Origin: Natrinema halophilum
GTDB lineage: Archaea > Halobacteriota > Halobacteria > Halobacteriales > Natrialbaceae
Assembly: GCF_013402815.2 (NCBI RefSeq)
Contig: NZ_CP058601.1
Span: forward strand, 4,278,001 to 4,342,000
Reading direction: 5' to 3'
DNA: 64,000 nucleotides
Part shown: positions 48,136 through 63,727 of the stretch, piece after piece
How positions within the stretch are numbered: position 1 is the first letter of the stretch
How the letters are laid out: each line of letters starts with the position of its first letter
The notes under the pieces: model-generated
Databases searched by the model: none
Told to the model about the DNA's origin: nothing
What the model saw: only the letters and a program-made list of their open reading frames with translations
Translations under genes and position numbers: made by a program

Positions 48136-48732
48136 GTGCCTGAGATTCGCGCATCGACAGACTCTTTCTTCGAGTCTCTGATTCGTTTGTCGACCCCATA
48201 GCCGCTCAGAGTACATCGACTCTCAATCTGCTCGGAAATATAGGTATTCTTCGAGTGTCCTTGGGCCCGATCGACTGTTCATGACTGGGTTCACAAGGCT
48301 GACTTACAGCCCACTTCCTGTCGCAGTCCGGATCACGTCGCGGTTGACGAGACGGTGATCCGACTCGGCGATGACCTGTATTGGCTGTACGCTGCTGTCG
48401 ATCCGGAGTCAACCGAATTACTCCATACTAAGCTTGAACCGACTAGAACCAAAGTCATCGTCCGTTCCTTCTTCACGGAATTGTGCGAGAAACACGACGT
48501 CAATGACGCCGTGTTTCTCGTCGATGGCGATAAGGCGCTGAACTATGCTTGTCAACGGCATGGCCTCGATTTCAGATGCGAACGACATGGAAATCGGAAC
48601 AGTGTCGAACGTGTCTTTCGTGAGATAAAGCGTAGAACCTCCTCTTTCTCAAACTGCTTTAGCAACGCTCATGCAGAAACTGCTGATCAGTGGCTCAAAT
48701 CATTCGCCTTCGCATGGAATCAGCGTATCTGA
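48136..48732 (+). pseudogene. IS6-family transposase remnant
   Basis: The C-terminal two thirds are intact in one frame: HVAVDETVIRLGDDLYWLYA, then VDPESTELLHTKLEPTRTKV, VFLVDGDKALNYACQRHGLD and ERHGNRNSVERVFREIKRRT. These hold the DDE residues of the IS6/IS26 transposase (D in VDET, D in LVDGD, E in NSVERVF). The N-terminus is broken: a GTG at 48136 begins PEIRASTDSFFESLIRLS, then a stop and at least one frameshift occur before STVHDWVHKADLQP. Terminal inverted repeats were not found by eye. It marks the right boundary of the arsenic operon. Confidence 0.85.
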
Positions 48733-49036
48733 ACACGATGACTGGCGGAGGCTGAAGATAGATAGGGGTAGACGCATTACTAGTTGAGTCTGGCTTGAAC
48801 CGGAAACGATAGCTGTCAAGAATGGTGTCGCTCGGCTGTTCGATGTACGCTCGGATACTTCTGCTATGCAGCGTGTCCGATTGTGTGTTGAATGACACCC
48901 GCAGAACTTCGTCGTTTTCGTACTCGTACCGATAATACTCTGATTGACCGTTTTGCTGTTCAATTGGTGCTTCGAGAACCGTCTCATCCGCAAAAGCCGT
49001 GCAATTAGCGAGTGAAGTCCCAGCTAACCCCGCCAT
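48695..49036 (-). CDS. Probable Tat lipoprotein, damaged at both ends
   Basis: From the ATG at 49036 the product begins MAGLAGTSLANCTAFADETV. In the same frame, upstream codons read KRDRQQYLAV, so the true signal peptide begins earlier but has no start codon unless one A is added to the run of four A at about 49060. The rest (EYYRYEYENDEVLRVSFNTQ) is beta-like and typical of haloarchaeal lipoproteins. Its C-terminus overlaps the last 38 bp of the IS6 remnant, so it was probably truncated by that insertion. Function unknown. Confidence 0.5.
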   Translation of the reverse strand: MAGLAGTSLANCTAFADETVLEAPIEQQNGQSEYYRYEYENDEVLRVSFNTQSDTLHSRSIRAYIEQPSDTILDSYRFRFKPDSTSNASTPIYLQPPPVIVFRYADSMRRRMI

Positions 49037-54255: not shown

Positions 54256-55299
54256 TCACTTATTGATTATTTTCCAGCGTCGCGCTGCTCGCTCGCGCCG
54301 GCTAGCACGGTCGTAATGCTTGTCGAGAATCTCTTCCGAGGCGTCGAGGCGATCGGAAACGACACCTCGTGGTACCCCGTCATTTCTGTACTTCGTCACC
54401 CTCGCCTTTCGGACGTCGTGGGGTGACCGGCTCGAGGGGCACTTGCTCATGTGCGTATGGTCGATCGCTTCACAGGTGTCGGTATCACGATCGTGAGGAC
54501 ACTCCTCGCCACGATGGCACGGTCGCGTCCACCTGTAGACCGTATCTCGAACGCAGCTGCGGCTCACCCGCCCTTGCTTCGTTGTAATGAGGGGGTCCCG
54601 CCCATGCCCATCCCTCACGTCCGATCGCGGTCCATCGATAAAATCTTGGACCATCCGCGCGGTTTCTTCGGTGATCCGGTTGTAGCGCTCACCCTGCTCG
54701 TTGTTCTTCAGTGGTGTCTTGCTCTCTGGCCGGTGAACGAAGTCGATTCCCGGCGTTCGCCCCTCGAGTTCGCAATCCTGTAGATCGATGGCACGGATTC
54801 CACCGAGGCGAGCTCCGGATTCCCAGATCAACGTCCAGATGACGTGATCCCGACTTGCGTACTCATAGCGCGACAAATACTCGAGAATCGGTGGAACTCG
54901 TTCAGGCACGATCTTGCTATCGCTCACTTCGTCACCGAGCGATAGATCCGGCAACGGTACTTTGAGGTACAGATCCTCCGGCACGGCTTCGATGTCGCTA
55001 CAGAATTGAAGGAATGCGCGAACGGTGGTGAGATTCGAGTGCAGTGTCTTTTTGGCGATCTCTTCGTCTTGCCCGTTCGAGTAGCCGCCCTCGCGTCTCC
55101 AGACGCGGAACTGGTAGAGATGACGTCCATTCAGTTCGTTCATGTTGTCGATGCCACCCTCTTGCCGGCACCACTCGACGAACGCCCGAAGATCGCTCTT
55201 GTGGCTCGTCTGCGTCCATTCAGCGGAGCCGTCCTTCATCGCGTCGAGGTGCAATTCGACAGCGTCTGATGGTGCGATCGCCTGGAGATCGTCGCTCAT
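54256..55299 (-). CDS. Tyrosine recombinase/integrase
   Basis: 347 residues from the ATG at 55297-55299. The N-terminal core-binding domain is AEWTQTSHKSDLRAFVEWCR. The catalytic domain has Arg164 in SGARLGGIRAIDLQDC, the H-x-x-R box SPHDVRKARVTKYRNDG (His294, Arg297) and the nucleophile Tyr329 in EILDKHYDRAS. The usual LGH box is changed (VVSDRLDASEE), with Asp near the third catalytic position. A Cys/His-rich insertion, CHRGEECPHDRDTDTCEAID, may bind zinc. It integrates and excises the element. Its start overlaps the 33-aa zinc-ribbon gene. Confidence 0.9.
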   Translation of the reverse strand: MSDDLQAIAPSDAVELHLDAMKDGSAEWTQTSHKSDLRAFVEWCRQEGGIDNMNELNGRHLYQFRVWRREGGYSNGQDEEIAKKTLHSNLTTVRAFLQFCSDIEAVPEDLYLKVPLPDLSLGDEVSDSKIVPERVPPILEYLSRYEYASRDHVIWTLIWESGARLGGIRAIDLQDCELEGRTPGIDFVHRPESKTPLKNNEQGERYNRITEETARMVQDFIDGPRSDVRDGHGRDPLITTKQGRVSRSCVRDTVYRWTRPCHRGEECPHDRDTDTCEAIDHTHMSKCPSSRSPHDVRKARVTKYRNDGVPRGVVSDRLDASEEILDKHYDRASRRERAARRWKIINK

Positions 55300-55397
55300 G
55301 CCCGACCCCCTCCGCATTTCGACCAACCACATTCCGGGCAGAACGGACACCCGCCGGACGGGTGGACACGGCCGCTGCCGCAATCTGGGCATTTCAT
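55296..55397 (-). CDS. Micro zinc-ribbon protein (33 aa)
   Basis: A very short gene with the product MKCPDCGSGRVHPSGGCPFC and then PECGWSKCGGGRA. Cys pairs CPDC, CPFC and PEC plus SKC give enough ligands for one or two zinc sites. Its ATG overlaps the stop of the 56-aa gene upstream and its stop overlaps the integrase ATG (ATGA at both joints), so all are translated together. This coupling is the main evidence that it is real. It may act as a recombination directionality factor or DNA-binding accessory (inference). Confidence 0.75.
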   Translation of the reverse strand: MKCPDCGSGRVHPSGGCPFCPECGWSKCGGGRA

Positions 55398-55564
55398 CGG
55401 CTTGCCCTCTGTTCTGTGTGATTACGCTCGCTCGCCTGATCGTATTCGGCCGCGATCTCCGACGCGCAACTCGAGCAGACGTACCCCTCTGGTGTGATCG
55501 TCTCGGCGTCATCCTCACACAGCGGAGTGTCGCATTCACCGATTCGAGCAAGCTCGAGGCTCAT
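55394..55564 (-). CDS. Micro zinc-finger protein (56 aa)
   Basis: The product begins MSLELARIGECDTPLCEDDA and continues ETITPEGYVCSSCASEIAAE, ending EQRASR. The pattern C-x4-C then C-x2-C is a treble-clef or DksA-like finger; similar small proteins lie next to integrases in many haloarchaeal elements. The start and stop both overlap neighbouring frames by four bases (ATGA). Likely a DNA- or RNA-polymerase-binding accessory; role unproven. Confidence 0.75.
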   Translation of the reverse strand: MSLELARIGECDTPLCEDDAETITPEGYVCSSCASEIAAEYDQASERNHTEQRASR

Positions 55565-55638
55565 CGTCCCACCTCGAGAGCATAATTCCAGTTACAATAT
55601 TCGGCACATTTACCGTTGTAGCGTCTCTTTTTGATCAT
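55561..55638 (-). CDS. Possible leader peptide or C-terminus of a longer protein
   Basis: The frame from the ATG at 55636-55638 gives MIKKRRYNGKCAEYCNWNYA and LEVGR, overlapping the next gene by four bases. The same frame is open up to 55992 (143 codons), with plausible sequence from SRYNRLTDSDRTRSLFHQAA onward. It contains the 17-bp repeat twice in frame, coding FGSIG each time. The four-base coupling suggests some translated frame ends here, but its true start is not decided. Confidence 0.35.
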   Translation of the reverse strand: MIKKRRYNGKCAEYCNWNYALEVGR

Positions 55639-55766
55639 GGTCTCACTGTTGTGGGACCGCGGACTCACCGCGCGCGCTGCCTGGTGGAACAAGGAGCGCG
55701 TGCGGTCGCTGTCCGTCAGTCGATTGTAACGGCTGTTCTCTCCCTTCTTAGTGGTTGGAAGCCGAA

Positions 55767-55858
55767 TTCCGATACTTCCAAAAAGGGTGTATTCCGGTGA
55801 CTGACACGCTCTCGTGAATGTTGCGCCGGGTTTCAGCGTCCTTCCGATACTTCCAAAA
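55767..55858. repeat. Pair of 17-bp direct repeats upstream of the integrase genes
   Basis: TTCCGATACTTCCAAAA occurs at 55767-55783 and 55842-55858, exactly 75 bp apart (about seven helical turns). On the minus strand the copies read TTTTGGAAGTATCGGAA, facing the integrase operon. They could be arm-type recombinase sites, operators or iterons. Confidence 0.7.
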
Positions 55859-55913
55859 TCGGTATCCGAAGGGACCATGGGCTTTGGGCCGTGAACTATG
55901 CTATCCGTTCTAT

Positions 55914-56002
55914 CGGGGACTTTATCCCCCGTAGCTTCGTGCGATTGCATGCTTCCGTACCATTGATACGGAAGCCAGGCGGCCGGTGCCATCTACACCG
56001 GC
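55914..56002. repeat. Three stacked hairpins in the element's divergent intergenic region
   Basis: First, CGGGGA with TCCCCCG around CTTTA (55914-55931). Second, a perfect 9-bp stem GCTTCCGTA/TACGGAAGC with the loop CCATTGA (55951-55975). Third, a perfect 7-bp stem GCCGGTG/CACCGGC with the loop CCATCTA (55982-56002). The two last loops are both 7 nt and share CCAT. This could be an origin, a recombination site or an RNA structure. Confidence 0.65.
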
Positions 56003-56183
56003 TCCGCTTTCTCTTGAGAACCCAACTGAGCAGCAGCGGGTTCGTCTGGCTTCCGTTGCGCTCACACAGACACAGGGGCTACTTAATACTACCTCACGAC
56101 TTCGTCATCTATAGAGCATGGAAACGTGTTATTTTATCCCCGACCGAACAGGTAATACGGGATATGTGCAATTATAGAAACGA

Positions 56184-56465
56184 ATGTACCGGCGGGTGGA
56201 CTGGATGAAAGCAGCAGATCAAGCGATCCTTCAGCTACTGGGTCCACCAAAGTCTCTCGAATTAACACCAAATAATATTGCCCGCAATACTGGCCTCAGC
56301 CGTGGATATACCAGTAAGCGACTTAGTGCTCTCGTCGAGCATGGACTCGTTAATGTGGATGAGGAATCGGGATCTCACCCATTCTATAGTTTGTCCGACC
56401 GTGGAGAGCAATTTCTTGAAGGTAAACTCAGTGTAGATGATCTTTCTCATACCGATCATGACTAA
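56184..56465 (+). CDS. PhiH1-repressor-like winged-helix protein
   Basis: 93 residues. MYRRVDWMKAADQAILQLLG opens the typical form, followed by LTPNNIARNTGLSRGYTSKR (helix-turn-helix) and LSALVEHGLVNVDEESGSHP, then FYSLSDRGEQFLEG, the wing. Haloarchaeal phage PhiH1 repressor homologues have the same plan. It probably represses the element's genes, perhaps the operon downstream and the divergent integrase. Lower GC than the chromosome supports foreign origin. Confidence 0.85.
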   Translation: MYRRVDWMKAADQAILQLLGPPKSLELTPNNIARNTGLSRGYTSKRLSALVEHGLVNVDEESGSHPFYSLSDRGEQFLEGKLSVDDLSHTDHD

Positions 56466-56558
56466 TTCTCAATCCTGATAATTAGCAGTGATTAGATAAC
56501 AGTTGGTGTGAATACGGCCTATCTATTCACAGAAGATTTGAATCTGGCAGGGTTACTT

Positions 56559-56615
56559 TCCCACCAATCTTGGTGGGATTATCTTACTCCTCAGGAGTTA
56601 TAATATTCTGAATAT
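56559..56615. promoter_or_regulatory. Cluster of palindromes before the histone-fold operon
   Basis: An 8-bp stem TCCCACCA/TGGTGGGA with a 4-nt loop (56559-56578) is followed by two perfect 13-bp palindromes of 6-1-6 form: ACTCCTCAGGAGT (56586-56598) and ATATTCTGAATAT (56603-56615), separated by TATA. The first may terminate the repressor gene; the paired palindromes look like operators. They lie 104-133 bp before the next start codon. Confidence 0.6.
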
Positions 56616-56718
56616 ATCGGCGTTTCCGGGGCAGTGGAGTATCCCCGTCTAACGGTCAACTGGACGGTTGACTGCTGGCCACCACGAATCGGTGAAAAAG
56701 ACTAATTGATATGACTGT

Positions 56719-57084
56719 ATGGATGCACTCATGACAGGTGATGAGGAGGACTCTAATAGCCCAGCGTCCCCGGTCAAACCCCACTCTCTCAAGAATTTCG
56801 TGAAGGAACAGTCCGACATGCGGGCGGGATCGGACGCCGTGGACGAACTCCACCACCACCTCGATTTCATCGCCGAACGCATCTGGCTGGAGGCGGCCAA
56901 AGAGGCCGAGGACGACGATAGGAAGACCGTCAAGCAACGCGACGTGCAGGAGGCAATCGACTCCGTGACCCAGCCCCACGATCTCATCAAGGAGACCTCC
57001 CGCCACCTCAGCTACATGCAGAACATGATCGACGGACAGGTGGAGAAGTCCCCGCTCTACGCGGAGAACCGGTATGACGACTGA
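56719..57084 (+). CDS. Single histone-fold protein
   Basis: 121 residues (an ATG four codons later, MTGDEEDSNS, is also possible). The core reads SLKNFVKEQSDMRAGSDAVD, ELHHHLDFIAERIWLEAAKE, then DRKTVKQRDVQEAIDSVTQP. The DRKTVKQRDV segment is the loop 2/helix 3 motif of archaeal histones (RKTVKxxDI). Ordinary haloarchaeal histone is a fused doublet of about 150 residues; this is one fold with an acidic N-terminus and a C-terminal extension QPHDLIKETSRHLSYMQNMI. It overlaps the next gene by 11 bases, so it is part of a three-gene unit. It may bind DNA as a dimer, or act as a scaffold for its partners. Confidence 0.8.
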   Translation: MDALMTGDEEDSNSPASPVKPHSLKNFVKEQSDMRAGSDAVDELHHHLDFIAERIWLEAAKEAEDDDRKTVKQRDVQEAIDSVTQPHDLIKETSRHLSYMQNMIDGQVEKSPLYAENRYDD

Positions 57085-58564
57085 TCGCTTCCTGTTCAGG
57101 GATGGATACTCCATCGACGAGAAGATCAGACGCATCCCCACCCCGAACATCTCTCCCGAGACTCCCGAGATCAACAGACGTCTCAGCGAACTAGATCTCT
57201 CCGAGCAAGACCTGAAACGTATCGGGAAGAGGGACTTCTTTGAGGAAGCCGAGGAGAAGCTCGATACGTCCGAATACCACCGATTCGTCTCCACGCTTTT
57301 CGACAGCTACGGCACCGAGGGCGACAAGTTCAATATGCAGCTGTTCGTCGCGGAGGAGTCGATTTCCCACGACGAACTTTCACGGCGGGCCGAACACTAC
57401 CGCGGAGATCGAATCGACTCCGACTTCGACTCGCTCGTCGAACCCATCGTCCTGACCGATAGCGACAGCGACTCAGACTCCGTGGACATGCAGTACCGAA
57501 CGACTGCGAGGCTAGAGGACATCAACCCGGACGAGAAGATCCCGATTCAGATCATCAACAAGGAGTCCGGCCAGACAGTCGAGCAGTACGGCGAAAACTA
57601 CAAGATTAAGGCTCCGGCTCGGTACCGAGTCGAGGCGAGGGTGTACACGGAGACCGGCCTCGTCGCTGTCTCCAACTACTCGAAAATCGCCGACGGACTG
57701 AAGACTGATATTGCGAAGACCGTCACCGAGATGGGACGGTCGGGGCCGTCGACGGGCGTCGGCGAGACAAGCCTCCTTGACCTGAACGAGACGGAACTGC
57801 TCTTCCTCCTACAGGAGATGGAGGGAGAAATCTCCGGTCTGGGGTACACCATCGAGATCGCCGGCGTAGACACCGCCGACTATACCGGTCAGCACGACGA
57901 GGACATCTTCGACACCGAACTCGTCCGCGCCGCCGACGACGCGGGACAAATCAGGAAGGTCAAGTTCTACGTCGATCATCCCCATGCCGACGCCGGCGAC
58001 GAGGAGGACGTGATGCTCCGCATCTTCGACGACGGTCACCTGACCACCTCAAAGCCCGTCCCGGCAGACCTCCTCGACGCTATCGTAGAGGAAATCCACA
58101 CCATCCGGGGGTACAAGGAGTTCCTCACCCCATTCGTCGAACTCATCCGCTCCTACGCCGGCGTGAAGTTTCGGGGGCGGTCGTCTACCATGCTCAACAG
58201 CCACGTCAGCGACACCAACCGCGCTCTCGATACCCTCATCGAGACCTACTTCGGCGAGCAGGACACGCAGACGGAGGAACTCCGGCTCTACAAGTCCATG
58301 ATCGCCAACATCGGAATCAAGCTCTGCGACGATGGAGTCCCGGCTGTTGAGGACGTGGACGGTGTGACCGAGGTTGACGACTTCTACGAGTACGACGGCA
58401 AGATAGAGGCGTTCTTCAACGACTACGCTAGCCACAGACTCGATAGACCCGACATCGACTTCGACGCCCTTTCCAACCACCTCCACCATCTCCTCATTCA
58501 GGACTGGGACAGTCCGGCCGACGTCATCGAGTACGCCACCGAGAAGTATGATCTTAGCCGATGA
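57074..58564 (+). CDS. Unknown 496-aa protein of the histone-fold operon
   Basis: I do not recognise this protein. The N-terminal 120 residues are helical and charged (YSIDEKIRRIPTPNISPETP, LSEQDLKRIGKRDFFEEAEE). The middle is beta-rich (YRTTARLEDINPDEKIPIQI, APARYRVEARVYTETGLVAV), with an Asp/Ser run DSDSDSDSVD near residue 130-137. The C-terminal 180 residues are helical again (TSKPVPADLLDAIVEEIHTI, FVELIRSYAGVKFRGRSSTM). No signal peptide or membrane helix is seen, so it is cytoplasmic. It overlaps both neighbours (11 and 17 bases), indicating translational coupling and probably a complex. Confidence 0.75.
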   Translation: MTTDRFLFRDGYSIDEKIRRIPTPNISPETPEINRRLSELDLSEQDLKRIGKRDFFEEAEEKLDTSEYHRFVSTLFDSYGTEGDKFNMQLFVAEESISHDELSRRAEHYRGDRIDSDFDSLVEPIVLTDSDSDSDSVDMQYRTTARLEDINPDEKIPIQIINKESGQTVEQYGENYKIKAPARYRVEARVYTETGLVAVSNYSKIADGLKTDIAKTVTEMGRSGPSTGVGETSLLDLNETELLFLLQEMEGEISGLGYTIEIAGVDTADYTGQHDEDIFDTELVRAADDAGQIRKVKFYVDHPHADAGDEEDVMLRIFDDGHLTTSKPVPADLLDAIVEEIHTIRGYKEFLTPFVELIRSYAGVKFRGRSSTMLNSHVSDTNRALDTLIETYFGEQDTQTEELRLYKSMIANIGIKLCDDGVPAVEDVDGVTEVDDFYEYDGKIEAFFNDYASHRLDRPDIDFDALSNHLHHLLIQDWDSPADVIEYATEKYDLSR

Positions 58565-59756
58565 GGCCGACGTACTAGAAGAAGCCTTCTACCGGGCCGA
58601 GGTGAGCGATGTCTCCACCCTCGAGTACCGCGGTGAGCAACTGCACCAGTACGCAGACTACCTCGGCATCGAGCGCGACATCGTCCCCTCCCTCAACTCA
58701 TACTTCTCAGTCTCGGCGGAACGACGCTGCGAGAAGCACAGCATCCCGGTCTCGTCCTGCGGGTGCCACGAGGAAAGGGAGGCCGAGACCACCATCTACA
58801 ATCTCGAACCCGAGGCACTCGTGGAGGACTGGGTCAGGACCCTGCGCGACGGAGACGTGTTTGACTCTGTTGAGCTGGAGACCTTGACCCCCACCAGACA
58901 CGCCCTCACGGCGAGGATCGACAGATCTGAGATCACCTTTCAGTGCTTCTTCGACAGGGACGACTTCGACCGGTACGACTTCGAGCCACTCGCACTGGAG
59001 TTCGGCGTCTCCTTCTTCGGTGATCACACCGCCGTCGAGCGCGAGTACTGCTACTCGTGGCGACAGTTTCTGGAGGACGGCTTCCGTGAACAGCTCACCC
59101 GCGACGTGAAACGCCTGAAGGAGACGATCGGGGCTGACTTCTACGAGTACAAGCCACTTGAGGACTTCCGGGACAGGGTGCGGCAAAGCCTCCGCCAGTA
59201 CTTCTCCGACTCTGGGTACGAGGTGCGCCGAGAGGTTGGCGAGGTGTGCCCGGTGGAGACCACTCAGTACGGAATCGACACCGGAAAAACTGATTTCGTC
59301 GCGTCCAAGGATGAGAGCGACTACATCGTCTGCCATTGCCAGAAAACACCCGGCTGGCACGTTCACCACTTCGCCGACAATCGCATCGAGTCCGCTGAGC
59401 AGACCCCGGTAATCAAGGACATGACCGGCAAGATCGAAGGGAAGATCAACACCTTCCTCGACATTCAGACAGACAAGAAGACCGCCTCCCGATTCGTCAC
59501 CGTCATCTCCACCCTCTTTTCGGTGGTCTTCGTCGTTCTCCTCTTTGACCGCCTCGGCTCCCTCTCGTCGTTCCTCCGTCAGCAGTTCCAACTAGGAGGC
59601 AGTCTGGAGGCAATCGGCGTCGGACTATTGATCCTTGATGCCATCGCGGTCATCGTCCTCGCCGCCGTCATCACCCGTCCGTACTACCTCGACTACCGAT
59701 TCAGCTGGAACATCGAGCCGTTCGATGAAGAGAATACTTCCGAGGCGGACAACTAA
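58548..59756 (+). CDS. Membrane-anchored protein with a Cys/His motif, third gene of the histone-fold operon
   Basis: 402 residues, not recognised. Near residue 58-75 lies RRCEKHSIPVSSCGCHEERE, a CxxH...CxCH zinc-like motif. The middle is mixed alpha/beta; residues about 240-270 hold KTDFVASKDESDYIVCHCQK and TPGWHVHHFADNRIE, which resembles the core of a restriction-endonuclease fold (D-x-V-A-S... and V-C-H-C-x-K), a weak likeness. Two helices near the end, FVTVISTLFSVVFVVLLFD and IGVGLLILDAIAVIVLAAVI, anchor it with a large N-terminal cytoplasmic part. It overlaps the 496-aa gene by 17 bases. Confidence 0.72.
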   Translation: MILADEADVLEEAFYRAEVSDVSTLEYRGEQLHQYADYLGIERDIVPSLNSYFSVSAERRCEKHSIPVSSCGCHEEREAETTIYNLEPEALVEDWVRTLRDGDVFDSVELETLTPTRHALTARIDRSEITFQCFFDRDDFDRYDFEPLALEFGVSFFGDHTAVEREYCYSWRQFLEDGFREQLTRDVKRLKETIGADFYEYKPLEDFRDRVRQSLRQYFSDSGYEVRREVGEVCPVETTQYGIDTGKTDFVASKDESDYIVCHCQKTPGWHVHHFADNRIESAEQTPVIKDMTGKIEGKINTFLDIQTDKKTASRFVTVISTLFSVVFVVLLFDRLGSLSSFLRQQFQLGGSLEAIGVGLLILDAIAVIVLAAVITRPYYLDYRFSWNIEPFDEENTSEADN

Positions 59757-59962
59757 CCCCGACAGACTACCAGATCTTCAGGTACTCATCAACGACGTCC
59801 TACGCCGACGCGTCCAGACCGTACACTTTGCGGAGTACCAGCTCGTCCAACTCGTAGCACAGCTCCTCAAACTCTTCTATCGGTTAGAAACCTGTAGCAA
59901 AGCCAGTAGGTGGTTTATGACAAGCAAGGATTAATGAGTTTTCTCTCTATCTAATACGTTGA
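59757..59962 (+). other. Short intergenic region with a possible gene fragment
   Basis: Directly after the membrane-protein stop, the +1 frame reads RLPDLQVLINDVLRRRVQTV and HFAEYQLVQLVAQLLKLFYR, a helical leucine-rich stretch, to a stop at 59935. It has no start codon of its own. It may be a decayed gene or chance. Promoter-like AT-rich sequence follows at 59930-59960. Confidence 0.35.
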
Positions 59963-61789
59963 ATGACAGGGCAGGATGACGGTAGGGTATCTCCCGCCTC
60001 TTACCCAGACTCGGATACAGATGAGCAAGCTACAATAGAGGTTCTGGAACAGCTATTTCCAGACGAAATTAAATCCCATATTGACTCGCGGGACAAAGTC
60101 CCTAATCACGATGGGCATATTGAGCTCGTAGATTCGGACGGAACCCCTATAGGCCGAATTGTTGTTCAAGTCAAGAAGTTGCCAGATGAGATGCGTGACC
60201 CTCCACGAAAACAGGTAGAGACAAAACATCTTGCCTACTGCCGTACGGTCACAGACCCCTTTGTTTTGATTGCCGTTGACGTTGATCATGAAGTAGGATA
60301 CTGGAAGCACATAACATCGGAGTGGTTTGAGGAAGAAAATCTAGACTCTCAAAAATCTAAAACAGTCCCATTTGACGAAGAGAACAAGATTGCCGAAGAG
60401 AGTGGGTATAGGAACGATTGGATACAGGTGATAGAAGATACAAAAAAGAGGATAGAAAACTATGACGAGTATGAGGAGCTAAGGAAAAGAGCTAATCCAG
60501 CAATTGGAAAATCGGAAGAGCGATTTGAAAACATTCATAGATTCTTGGACAAGTTACACAATCTATTAAATACAGACTTCCAGACTATAAAAGAGAACCA
60601 ATATCCTAGCGTTTGGAAATTTGGATTCGGGAGTATTGATTATGGGGTGGAAAGCCTACACTATACCCTATATCCAATCGAAAGCGATGAAAATGATGCG
60701 CAGATACGGGATGTAGACCCGGACTGGGAGGAGATCCATCGGTTGGGTGCTTCGAGACGGAGGGGTGTTGCAGGCAATCCAATTGAAAGAGAGCCAGAGC
60801 GGTTTGCTTACAATGCTATAAAAAAAGAAGTTGAAAAACAGATTGAAGACAGGAACCTCAACTACTCCAGTTGTACATTTCTTGCAGAAGAATATGTATA
60901 TCCGTTTGTCCACAAATATGCATCATTACTGGGGATACAACGAAGTTCTGAATATGAAATAAGTGACATTAGGGAAGGATACTATCGCTATCTACAATTT
61001 TGGCTTACCGAGGAAATTCGTGGTCTTCTTCAGGACCACAGTATTGGCGAAGTGGGGGTCCATCTGGAGGGTTACTTAGATCGAGAAGAGGAGCCTCGAT
61101 TTGCAAGAATCCACGAATCTGCGCAGGAGCAGACTCAGGAAGCCTCGAATGATCCACCGAAGCATCGAATCCACGGACCCAATTTCGACCAAGAAATCCT
61201 GGAGAGAATGCTCGATGTCCTTGAAGATAGCCCACAGGCTACGATAACAAAGCCCTATGCAGAAAGGGATAGAACAAGAGATGACGTTGGGTCTACAGAT
61301 ACAATCTGGGATTTCTACACGGATGAAGCAATTGTCAAAAATGCAGAGAGTTATTACACTAATTATCCAAAAGAATACCAAAGATTACTAACTCAGAATT
61401 TTGAATCATTAGAGTCAGAGTTTTCATATCCACACACTGGATTTCTCCTTGTAGTCGTTGATGTTGAAAACATCCGAGCAGGTCTAGGGGGAGGTTGGTG
61501 TATCCGTCAATTCTGGCTTGAAGACGATGGGGATGAATTAAGAATTGAATTTCACCGGGCCAACGACACAGAACTTCCGAAAGATATCCATCAACATATA
61601 GACACTCTAGAATATGATGGGGAAGAATATCAAGTAGTTGCGCAATCAGTAGGCTCAGATCATAAAATAATGGATGCAGCGAGAGGTGAGAAGCCTGTTT
61701 TTGAGGATGTCCATGAAGAACTCAACAGAGATCTAGAATCTTACTTGCGTGAGAAGGAAGCAGACATCATCCCAGGGGCTATGAGGTAA
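59963..61789 (+). CDS. DUF4365-domain protein (PD-(D/E)xK nuclease-like), AT-rich
   Basis: 608 residues. Residues about 15-150 match DUF4365: EQLFPDEIKSHIDSRDKVPN, then HDGHIELVDSDGTPIGRIVV and QVKKLPDEMRDPP, with Asp50 and the pair Gln69-x-Lys71 in the place of the D...(D/E/Q)xK catalytic site. The following FVLIAVDVDHEVGYWKHI is also typical. The rest is long, helical and unknown. DUF4365 occurs in many restriction or abortive-infection contexts. The gene is far more AT-rich than its surroundings and uses codons such as AAA, ATA and AGA freely, so it was acquired from another source. It has its own promoter region. Confidence 0.8.
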   Translation: MTGQDDGRVSPASYPDSDTDEQATIEVLEQLFPDEIKSHIDSRDKVPNHDGHIELVDSDGTPIGRIVVQVKKLPDEMRDPPRKQVETKHLAYCRTVTDPFVLIAVDVDHEVGYWKHITSEWFEEENLDSQKSKTVPFDEENKIAEESGYRNDWIQVIEDTKKRIENYDEYEELRKRANPAIGKSEERFENIHRFLDKLHNLLNTDFQTIKENQYPSVWKFGFGSIDYGVESLHYTLYPIESDENDAQIRDVDPDWEEIHRLGASRRRGVAGNPIEREPERFAYNAIKKEVEKQIEDRNLNYSSCTFLAEEYVYPFVHKYASLLGIQRSSEYEISDIREGYYRYLQFWLTEEIRGLLQDHSIGEVGVHLEGYLDREEEPRFARIHESAQEQTQEASNDPPKHRIHGPNFDQEILERMLDVLEDSPQATITKPYAERDRTRDDVGSTDTIWDFYTDEAIVKNAESYYTNYPKEYQRLLTQNFESLESEFSYPHTGFLLVVVDVENIRAGLGGGWCIRQFWLEDDGDELRIEFHRANDTELPKDIHQHIDTLEYDGEEYQVVAQSVGSDHKIMDAARGEKPVFEDVHEELNRDLESYLREKEADIIPGAMR

Positions 61790-61952
61790 CTGCCACTGCG
61801 GTTAGGTTTGACACTCATGGTAGTCCGAATCCTTGTAGAGTGCATGTTATTTGTGAAGCCTCTGGCGGATCGGCCAAGTCTAACGTCACCTCATCATCCT
61901 CAAACGCACGCATAAATCTGTTAGCTTTGAATAAATTCTCTGAACTCAATTT

Positions 61953-62408
61953 ATGATCCTGTTCCTCTGCACCCAGCAGCGGAACTACGGCTACGGCATC
62001 ACGCGGCTGAAGGACACGCAGGTTGTCGACTTCGACGACCTGGACTACTCCCGGATCGAGAACGGCGAGGCCTTCCTCGTGGAGGTGACGACGCCGTTCG
62101 TGCTGGAGTCGGAGTATCCCAAGGCCGCCGACCAGGACGTCCCGTGGTGGTGGAAGGAGAGTCGTCGGGATCTCCGTGAGCGAGAGGAGAAGATCCTCGA
62201 GCAACGGGAGGTCTACAAGCTTCAGACCGTCGACCACGGGCAGGTCGTGAAGTACGAGGGCGACCGCCCCATCGAGACCGCGAAGAGCGGCATCCTTCGG
62301 GTCGGCAGTCACTCGAAGTACGGCTTCGGAGAGCTTCGAGTGAAGCCGGTCGAACCCCGGTCAGATCAGTGTAAGAACTCAGAGAAGAACGGCGAAACAA
62401 CGGAGTGA
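61953..62408 (+). CDS. Orphan RAMP-like (Csx10/Cas5-type) domain protein
   Basis: 151 residues. Two glycine-rich loops with the RAMP look are present: QQRNYGYGITRLKDTQ (Gly13, Gly15) and SGILRVGSHSKYGFGELRVK (Gly113, Gly118, Gly124, Gly126). The order between them, a strand GEAFLVEVTTPFVLES, a charged helix and TVDHGQVVKYEGDRPIETAK, parallels the C-terminal half of Csx10-type CRISPR RAMP proteins, where AxxAGSVYVFEG precedes the GIGExxxEGFG loop. An N-terminal half is missing and no cas genes or arrays lie nearby. It may be a remnant or a stand-alone RNA-binding domain. GC content returns to the host level. The RAMP assignment is inference. Confidence 0.5.
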   Translation: MILFLCTQQRNYGYGITRLKDTQVVDFDDLDYSRIENGEAFLVEVTTPFVLESEYPKAADQDVPWWWKESRRDLREREEKILEQREVYKLQTVDHGQVVKYEGDRPIETAKSGILRVGSHSKYGFGELRVKPVEPRSDQCKNSEKNGETTE

Positions 62409-62516
62409 GAAATCCGAACGATGACAGGCGAATCGGCGACTAAACATCACGCGGTTCCGTGAATAAAGAAATCGTATTCACAACAACTGATAATACACCA
62501 ATCTATAGTAAGTGAC

Positions 62517-62915
62517 ATGACCTCAAGACGGCGTCTCATTGCTAGCATCGGAACTAGTGCGTTAGTATCTATTTCAGGTTGCATAGGTGGGACCAGTGAA
62601 TCATATGATAGTTATTCAACTGGATACGAATTATACAGCGAAGCCCACGATGCACATGTGAACGGAAATAATGAGGATGCTATTACCTTGTATGATAAAG
62701 CAGCCAAAAAATTTGGAGAGGCGGAAAAAGCAGCAAGTGACGATACCGTGGAGAAATATTGCTATGAAGCACGAAAGCTGGCAAATCACAAAGCCCGCAC
62801 CATAGAAGAAAATGGCAATGACGACTATGAAAGTTCCTTACAAACAGCTTCACGTGGGCGCGAAGTCGCCCAATATGAGGTTCGTTCTCCTTCAGACATA
62901 AAGTGGGAAAGCTGA
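62517..62915 (+). CDS. Tat lipoprotein with helical repeat (TPR-like)
   Basis: 132 residues. The signal MTSRRRLIASIGTSALVSIS has a twin-arginine and ends in the lipobox SGCIGG. The mature part is helical: GYELYSEAHDAHVNGNNEDA, ITLYDKAAKKFGEAEKAASD, then EKYCYEARKLANHKART. The spacing of Tyr, Ala and Gly resembles TPR-like helix pairs. Base composition is AT-rich. No partner is known. Confidence 0.75.
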   Translation: MTSRRRLIASIGTSALVSISGCIGGTSESYDSYSTGYELYSEAHDAHVNGNNEDAITLYDKAAKKFGEAEKAASDDTVEKYCYEARKLANHKARTIEENGNDDYESSLQTASRGREVAQYEVRSPSDIKWES

Positions 62916-62931
62916 ATTCCTTTTTAAATAA

Positions 62932-63192
62932 TCATCGCCACTTACTTTCAATCGACGTTCGGTATCGAAGGCCGATCACAGAGGTATTTGCAATCTCCTG
63001 AATAGTTGCGGGATCGTATTCTTCTCGAGCATCGTCGATGTTCCGTTCATGCTCGATCAAGTTCTCGAGAGCCGCATCAATCACGACGGACATCGGCGGG
63101 TCGTCATAGTCGTCCGCGGCGACTATCTCGCTCGCGCGCTCGAGTTTCCGTTGCCGTTCGTCGGTAAGTTTGAGGCTGGTCCGTTTGGTCAT
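62932..63192 (-). CDS. Ribbon-helix-helix-like small protein (DUF7386-like)
   Basis: 86 residues. MTKRTSLKLTDERQRKLERA is the N-terminal strand and helix of a ribbon-helix-helix protein, followed by DDPPMSVVIDAALENLIEHE, and the end SVIGLRYRTSIESKWR. Similar proteins are common in haloarchaeal plasmids and proviruses and are thought to be regulators or antitoxins. No toxin partner is seen next to it. Confidence 0.82.
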   Translation of the reverse strand: MTKRTSLKLTDERQRKLERASEIVAADDYDDPPMSVVIDAALENLIEHERNIDDAREEYDPATIQEIANTSVIGLRYRTSIESKWR

Positions 63193-63436
63193 GGTTTAAA
63201 CGAGGGTATGCACTGGGGGGTGATTCGCGTTGCTCGCGGGTGAGTGAGTGGCCAGTCCTTTTTGAATGGGGGCGGGGCTCCAGCGTGATCACGGCAAGGG
63301 CTGGTCGGATCGGCTCCAGTTCTATGCACCTCTCGAGCCCATAGCCCACGGTAGGGTGCATACATCGAAGTCGTCGTATACATTCGCGGCGGACCCCGTG
63401 GGGTCGGATCTGAAGACGCCATTCCAGCGGGCTCGA

Positions 63437-63622
63437 TCACGTGTCGATCCCCTCGACGAGCTCGAGTGACCATTCTCCATCATCGACGTGACGAATGTGA
63501 ACGTGATGATCGCCCTCGAGCCGACCGTCTTCGTCGAGAAGCCCCTCGACGCGCATGTCGTCTTTCGGGAGTGTGATCCCGACTGAATCGCGGTCCAACT
63601 GGCGGAGTTTGTTCAGCGCCAT
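63437..63622 (-). CDS. AbrB-like small protein (DUF8053-like)
   Basis: 61 residues from the ATG at 63620-63622: [20 protein letters not shown], then [20 protein letters not shown], ending [10 protein letters not shown]. The swapped-hairpin pattern (GITLPKDD...G) is that of SpoVT/AbrB-type DNA-binding domains. An upstream in-frame ATG at 63664 would add 14 residues. Such genes are frequent in haloarchaeal proviruses near structural genes. Confidence 0.75.
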
Positions 63623-63727
63623 ATCCGGCGGGCAACCCCCCATCTCATAAAGATTGGTGACCATTGGGATTCCCGAGGTATTCCGGACTCTTTCCTTTGG
63701 GCGAATTGGACCGCCTTGCGTTGCACA

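What the first reader, a model, noticed from the sequence alone, without database searches (positions are those of the whole stretch)
56559..59756. Three-gene overlapping operon with a single histone-fold protein and two unknown partners inside an integrative element
A protein with a clear histone fold (RKTVKQRDV motif) but only one fold, unlike the fused-doublet haloarchaeal histone, is translationally coupled (11- and 17-base overlaps) to a 496-aa protein I cannot assign and to a 402-aa membrane-anchored protein with a Cys/His cluster. The overlaps indicate a fixed stoichiometric unit. It lies beside an integrase, a phage-type repressor and a DUF4365 nuclease-like gene, as defence systems do. 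A histone-fold subunit used as a DNA sensor or scaffold with a membrane effector would be a new architecture. The overlaps and motif are seen in the sequence; the defence role is inference.
Basis: partly seen in the sequence, partly recalled or inferred. Interest (0 to 1): 0.85.

Follow-up and report, generated by a model that had tools for sequence, protein, structure and literature searches.

The report
Mobile histone, RdgC-like and membrane operon
Three overlapping genes in a salt-loving archaeon make a histone-fold protein, an RdgC-like DNA clamp and a membrane protein; this trio was described in 2024 with no known function, and here it proves to be a mobile cassette that often sits next to antiviral defence genes.

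Summary
In detail: 121-, 496- and 402-aa genes overlap by 11 and 17 bases, and the first has a real histone fold. The trio is not new. It matches the 'RdgC histone' operon of Schwab et al. 2024 (PMC11390915): histone first, RdgC-like protein second, transmembrane protein third. Here ORF2's predicted fold hits E. coli RdgC first, then CENP-N, archaeal TBP and, weakly, lambda RexA. ORF3 has a winged-helix-like start, a CxC/HxH site and two C-terminal membrane helices.

New here: (1) in 391 haloarchaeal genomes the three genes occur in the same 13 (one copy decayed), never apart. (2) DNA similarity between copies stops at the trio's edges, so it moves as a ~3.2 kb cassette; DUF4365, integrase and HTH are not part of it. 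(3) All three genes are under purifying selection (dN/dS 0.02-0.13). (4) In 5 copies ORF2 is two genes. (5) Neighbours are rich in defence systems (R-M, Druantia, Pycsar, Hma, DISARM-like, SoFic) against same-replicon controls. (6) The host element is a chassis with swapped cargo.

Most likely a Rex-like anti-invader system (about 50%); function is inferred. Homology to the Haloferax volcanii and Bacillus type operons was not tested.

The parts
56719..57084 (+). ORF1, 121-aa RdgC-type histone: conserved PxK stretch, one histone fold (about residues 23-83), C-terminal helical tail
   Evidence: Pfam PF00808 1.5e-4, NCBIfam NF043032 2.5e-10, PDB 1f1e/8bdk; 15-member family alignment; dN/dS 0.02-0.13
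57074..58564 (+). ORF2, 496-aa RdgC-like protein: N-terminal helical domain, two alpha/beta lobes with a junction near residue 225-230, C-terminal helical domain
   Evidence: AF2 model (pLDDT 63); Foldseek: E. coli RdgC E=3.1e-5 prob 1.00, CENP-N 1.1e-4 prob 0.98, archaeal TBP, RexA weak; phage RdgC proteins; split into two genes in five relatives
58548..59756 (+). ORF3, 402-aa membrane protein: winged-helix-like N-terminus with Cys-rich wing, middle alpha/beta domain, CxC/HxH site, two C-terminal membrane helices
   Evidence: AF2 model (pLDDT 76); alignments; hydropathy; no confident PDB fold match
56658..56718 (+). Upstream stretch that travels with the trio (86% identical in Halorientalis regularis), presumed promoter region
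   Evidence: blastn boundary at 56658 against L033; promoter role inferred
56560..56577 (.). Perfect palindrome CCCACCAAtcTTGGTGGG, a possible operator; not conserved upstream of other copies
   Evidence: only exact match in the window; 0.07 matches expected by chance with up to 3 mismatches
54256..55551 (-). Tyrosine integrase of the host integrative element (context, not part of the trio)
   Evidence: Pfam/NCBIfam tyrosine-recombinase matches; 32-55% identical integrases in congeners with other cargo
56184..56465 (+). Winged HTH of the element chassis (context)
   Evidence: HTH_IclR 5.5e-6; kept in congeners without the trio
59963..61789 (+). 608-aa DUF4365 protein, separate cargo gene (context)
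   Evidence: Pfam PF14280 3e-9, PADLOC Aga_REase 3.9e-7; DNA similarity of other trio copies ends before it

Best explanation
This is an RdgC-histone operon: a compact, horizontally moving three-protein module. Shown: one translationally overlapping unit of a histone-fold protein, an RdgC-fold protein and a two-helix membrane protein, kept and transferred as a unit and often beside known defence systems. Inferred: the histone and the RdgC-like clamp bind or bridge DNA together (histone tetramer through its C-terminal helix, RdgC-like dimer around the duplex). They recognise invading or abnormally structured DNA, for example replicating virus or plasmid DNA or a recombination intermediate, and pass that state to the membrane protein through its winged-helix and metal-site domains. 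The membrane protein then anchors the DNA at, or perturbs, the membrane so that invader replication stops. The plan resembles lambda RexA/RexB exclusion (RdgC-fold DNA binder plus membrane protein), with a histone added.
For: Membership by architecture: same gene order and parts as in PMC11390915; ORF2 fold is RdgC, prob 1.00. Unit: histone and ORF2 in the same 13 of 391 genomes, ORF3 in 12 of them. Cassette: DNA identity 71-94% confined to the trio plus about 60-190 bp while flanks differ, across genera and families. Constraint: dN/dS 0.02-0.13, ORF3 usually the least constrained. Defence neighbourhood: PADLOC defence genes within about 6 kb at 8 of 17 loci: Hma (L010), SoFic plus DrmMI-type MTase (L013), IIG/N6 MTase (L028), Snf2/DrmD-like helicase plus MTases (L029), Pycsar (L031), Druantia DruE (L033), type I R-M (L035), PDC-M19A 70 bp away (L036). 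Neighbour proteins match 116 PADLOC families at E<=1e-20, against 20 (14 of them UvrD-type GajB models) for 15 same-replicon control stretches. RexA shares the RdgC fold and works with membrane protein RexB (PMC11077077); RexA itself appears in the fold search, weakly.
Against: No experiment. No PADLOC or Pfam model covers ORF2 or ORF3. Defence neighbours are also expected for any cargo of plasmids and islands; the controls are same-replicon but not all from islands, and counts of families are not counts of genes. Nine of 17 loci have no clear defence neighbour in range. The same chassis carries pilins and unknowns in congeners, so cargo is not always defence. PMC11390915 reports low to moderate expression and suggests no defence role. 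ORF2's model is of middling confidence (pLDDT 63, pTM 0.52) and TM-scores are low. ORF3's TM hairpin could be only an anchor. Direct homology to the Haloferax volcanii or Bacillus type operons was not tested; no other Haloferax in the set of 15 matched.
Confidence: 0.5

Rival explanations
1. Membrane-anchored DNA segregation or maintenance module: a histone plus a CENP-N-like reader tethers a replicon to the membrane, a centromere-like arrangement for plasmids and elements.
For: ORF2's second-best fold match is human CENP-N, including the CENP-A nucleosome complex; five copies are on plasmids, some near orc1/cdc6 or ParA; winged-helix plus membrane helices could anchor DNA.
Against: Copies also lie on large chromosomal contigs, in the window inside a small integrative element; occurrence is sporadic (13 of 391); the CENP-N match is a fold shared with RdgC and TBP, not evidence of shared function; defence neighbours are unexplained.
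Confidence: 0.15
2. Xenogeneic silencer or nucleoid protein of mobile elements: the histone bridges foreign or element DNA and the partners regulate its expression or recombination, without an effector step.
For: RdgC histones are predicted DNA bridgers and a similar coiled-coil histone bridges DNA in vitro (PMC11390915); RdgC modulates RecA (same paper); the histone keeps the RKT motif in the window copy.
Against: Does not explain the obligate membrane protein; the RKT motif varies in distant members; the published expression rank is low to moderate.
Confidence: 0.2
3. Counter-defence or transfer factor that protects incoming element DNA from host nucleases or aids its establishment.
For: Carried by mobile elements and plasmids; RdgC-type proteins are encoded by many phages.
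Against: No homologue of ORF2 or ORF3 in 50,697 phage records and none of ORF2 in the viral contigs scan; lies beside defence rather than transfer genes.
Confidence: 0.1

Closest known systems
RdgC-histone operon (Schwab et al. 2024, PMC11390915)
   Same: Histone-fold gene first, RdgC-like gene second, membrane protein third; RdgC-like protein with extra N- and C-terminal domains; membrane protein with winged helix, middle domains and TM; Halobacteria
   Different: Nothing in the window copy contradicts it; several relatives have ORF2 split into two genes, which the passages read do not mention. No sequence comparison with D4GVY1 or the Bacillus operon was possible
RexA/RexB of phage lambda (PMC11077077)
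   Same: RdgC-fold DNA-binding protein encoded with a membrane protein; exclusion of other phages
   Different: No histone; RexB is a 16-kDa protein with four predicted TM helices, without ORF3's soluble domains; fold match to RexA is weak (prob 0.21)
E. coli RdgC
   Same: Best PDB fold match of ORF2 (E=3.1e-5, prob 1.00)
   Different: ORF2 is longer by helical regions at both ends; no detectable sequence similarity; E. coli RdgC has no histone partner (own knowledge)
CENP-N with the CENP-A nucleosome (kinetochore)
   Same: Same RdgC/TBP-like fold family working with a histone partner
   Different: Fold similarity only; no evidence of common descent of the pairing or of a segregation role
Coiled-coil histone HMfC and HmvA
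   Same: Histone fold with C-terminal helix; HmvA is the family profile's best PDB match
   Different: Not encoded with an RdgC-like or membrane partner (PMC11390915 for coiled-coil histones; own knowledge for HmvA)

Membership tests
RdgC-histone operon | Single histone fold, encoded by the first gene of the operon | tested here: met
   first gene at all 17 non-decayed loci
RdgC-histone operon | C-terminal helix forming a tetrameric coiled coil | tested here: inconclusive
   About 35 residues with helix-like spacing follow the fold; no structure of ORF1 or of a multimer was computed
RdgC-histone operon | Second gene encodes an RdgC-like protein with extra N- and C-terminal domains | tested here: met
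   Foldseek RdgC prob 1.00, phage RdgCs; helical N- and C-terminal regions in the model
RdgC-histone operon | Third gene encodes a TM protein with winged helix, two further domains and TM domain | tested here: met
   H-E-H-H-E-E order at residues 4-86 and two C-terminal TM helices; winged helix read from secondary-structure order only
RdgC-histone operon | TM protein found only with the RdgC histone | tested here: met
   ORF3 profile: 12 genomes, all with the histone and ORF2, plus one weak TM-only hit; the same five plasmids
RdgC-histone operon | Sequence homology to type members (H. volcanii D4GVY1, Bacillus cereus) | not tested
   Sequences not at hand; other Haloferax genomes in the set gave no match
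Known anti-phage defence system | Match to a described defence protein family | tested here: not met
   No PADLOC match for ORF2 or ORF3; a weak chance-level one for ORF1
Known anti-phage defence system | Location in defence-rich regions | tested here: met
   8 of 17 loci; 116 against 20 PADLOC families
Known anti-phage defence system | Protection against viruses | not testable with these tools
   needs an infection assay
RexAB-type exclusion | RdgC-fold protein plus membrane protein homologous to RexA and RexB | tested here: inconclusive
   Fold shared with RexA only weakly; ORF3 shows no credible fold match

The most novel reading that the evidence does not exclude
The RdgC-histone operon is an immune system in which a DNA-bridging histone and an RdgC-fold clamp sense foreign DNA and trigger a membrane effector: it would be the first histone-based prokaryotic defence system known to me, and a prokaryotic parallel of a CENP-N-fold protein working with a histone.
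Probability: 0.4. Interest if true: 0.88.

Novelty: new member of a known kind. Interest (0 to 1): 0.55.

Why it matters
The operon class has been known since 2024 without a function. Its behaviour as a sharply bounded mobile cassette, nearly always complete and often beside restriction, Druantia, Pycsar and DISARM-like genes, makes a defence role directly testable in culturable haloarchaea. If true, histones would gain a role as parts of an immune sensor, and the pairing of an RdgC/CENP-N fold with a histone would exist in prokaryotes.

Tried and rejected
DUF4365 as fourth gene: rejected, DNA similarity of other copies stops before it. HTH and integrase as parts: rejected, they belong to the element chassis. 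Upstream palindrome as conserved operator: rejected, absent upstream of other copies. Viral origin: ORF2 and ORF3 not found in phage records; ORF2 not found in viral contigs. Sequence search of ORF2 and ORF3 profiles against PDB: nothing credible. ORF3 fold search: best hits LINE-1 endonuclease at E=0.016, prob 0.2, judged chance. Structured RNA near the element: none. N6_Mtase density in 12 carrier genomes: one gene beside the trio in G384 and one in G345; supportive, but the family was chosen after seeing those loci, so not used. Literature search in the held library found no paper assigning the operon a function.

Full report
Observation. Three + strand reading frames, 56719-57084, 57074-58564 and 58548-59756, overlap by 11 and 17 nt. 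ORF1 carries one histone fold by Pfam, NCBIfam and PDB comparison, and a 15-member family profile finds HmvA, other archaeal histones and H2A/H2B. ORF2 and ORF3 match no curated family.

Identity. The arrangement is the one Schwab et al. (PMC11390915) named RdgC histones: histone gene first, then an RdgC-like protein, then a membrane protein with a winged helix, two unknown domains and a TM part, in certain Halobacteria and Bacillus. I tested this independently. An AlphaFold2 model of ORF2 from seven relatives (pLDDT 63, pTM 0.52) matches E. coli RdgC first (E 3.1e-5, prob 1.00), then human CENP-N, archaeal TBP and, weakly, lambda RexA; in the viral library, several of the top matches are phage RdgC proteins. 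RdgC, RexA and the yeast CENP-L/CENP-N orthologues Iml3/Chl4 are described as sharing a fold in PMC11077077, and Chl4/Iml3 as resembling RdgC and TBP in PMC4080450. Low TM-scores mean the lobes are placed differently or poorly modelled. ORF3 (pLDDT 76) shows the helix-strand order of a winged helix at residues 4-86, with Cys-rich residues in the wing in close relatives, a CxC-(6)-HxH site at 262-273 kept in 13 of 14 aligned sequences and two C-terminal membrane helices; no PDB fold match is credible. Sequence comparison with the type members was not possible, and no other Haloferax species in the set of 15 matched.

The unit. Profiles of the three proteins were run separately over the same 391 genomes of the class. 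The histone (above 120 bits) and ORF2 occur in the same 13; ORF3 in 12 of these. The exception, G050 (L038), keeps the histone but has a truncated ORF2 and no ORF3: a decaying copy. Four more plasmid copies and one MAG copy were found. Gene order is kept at all 17 other loci, with overlapping reading frames; in two of these a frame is interrupted in the deposited sequence (ORF3 in Haloferax larsenii, where the contig holds an ambiguous base; ORF2 in the MAG). In five (L013, L029, L035, L036, L037) ORF2 is two adjacent genes, residues about 1-225 and 230-496, overlapping by 4 nt in L013 and L029; the two genes are annotated separately in Natronomonas gomsonensis. The cut falls between the two alpha/beta lobes of the model.

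A mobile cassette. Between copies in different genera, DNA similarity covers the trio and little else: 93.6% over 3.2 kb between Natronorubrum thiooxidans and a species of the window's genus (L010/L011), 86% between the window and Halorientalis regularis (L033) from 56658 to 59873, with no alignable flanks apart from one unrelated 264-bp match. dN/dS is 0.02-0.13 for all three genes in four pairs. So the functional unit is the trio with a short upstream stretch; DUF4365, integrase and HTH are excluded.

Host element. In the window the trio sits in a small integrative element. Congeners carry the same chassis (integrase, a conserved stretch at about 55545-56060, winged HTH, right end near 63437) with other cargo: 0.7 kb with a lipoprotein-like gene in G060, pilin-like genes in G068, G070, G073 and G078, an AlbA/Schlafen protein in G072, and a 10 kb load with MazG-like and HNH proteins in G068.

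Defence association. PADLOC matches within about 6 kb at 8 of 17 loci: HmaB/HmaC with a PglZ-like protein; SoFic and a DrmMI-type methyltransferase; a type IIG-like methyltransferase; Snf2/DrmD-like helicase with methyltransferases; Pycsar cyclase and effector; DruE; type I R-M; PDC-M19A. As a control I took 15 stretches from the same replicons: 114 neighbour proteins match 116 PADLOC families at E<=1e-20; 101 control proteins match 20, of which 14 are GajB/UvrD helicase models. Genes were called by a simple longest-ORF rule in both sets. One neighbour match labelled BrxA was not traced and is not counted. The control does not separate 'defence module' from 'any cargo of an island'.

Mechanism. 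Shown: parts, unit, mobility, constraint, neighbourhood. Inferred: histone and RdgC-like protein bind DNA jointly; the membrane protein is anchor or effector; the trigger is invading DNA. RexA/RexB is the nearest working model: an RdgC-fold DNA binder that interacts with a membrane protein and excludes phages. I give defence of this kind about 50%, silencing or recombination control 20%, segregation 15%, counter-defence 10%. The CENP-N match is noted as a structural parallel, not as evidence of descent.

Novelty. A new member of a known, functionally unassigned kind; the split-gene form, the strict co-occurrence over genomes, the cassette boundaries and the defence association were not in the passages of PMC11390915 that I read.

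Noticed in passing
window 54256-63700; L084-L092: Integrative-element chassis (integrase, ~500-bp conserved stretch, winged HTH, right end near 63437) shared across the genus with swapped cargo: lipoprotein, archaeal pilins, AlbA/Schlafen, MazG-like/HNH genes.
   Followed up: partly
window 61953-62408: 151-aa ORF with weak similarity to Cmr3/Cas7 RAMP proteins (PADLOC 1.3e-3); a stretch including most of it (61978-62492) recurs at 81% identity elsewhere in the same genome and in congeners.
   Followed up: no
window 59963-61789: 608-aa DUF4365 protein with an N-terminal match to an Argonaute-associated REase domain (PADLOC 3.9e-7); a candidate stand-alone nuclease cargo.
   Followed up: no
L092:8754-10019 (-): 422-aa protein joining an N-terminal winged HTH to a TFIIB (Zn ribbon plus repeats), in the cargo of a related element.
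   Followed up: no
L013, L029, L035, L036, L037: RdgC-like protein encoded as two adjacent genes, giving a four-gene form of the operon.
   Followed up: partly
L038:8749-9316 (-): Decayed copy: histone intact, RdgC-like gene truncated, membrane gene lost.
   Followed up: partly
window 48263-48740: Stretch repeated many times in congeners (about 70-90% identity), holding a truncated transposase-like frame.
   Followed up: partly
L010:13233-19302 (-): HmaB- and HmaC-like genes with a short PglZ-like protein between them, in Natronorubrum thiooxidans; looks like a Hma/BREX intermediate.
   Followed up: no
L036:7271-7777 (-): PDC-M19A-like gene 70 bp downstream of the trio on the same strand, possibly co-transcribed.
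   Followed up: no
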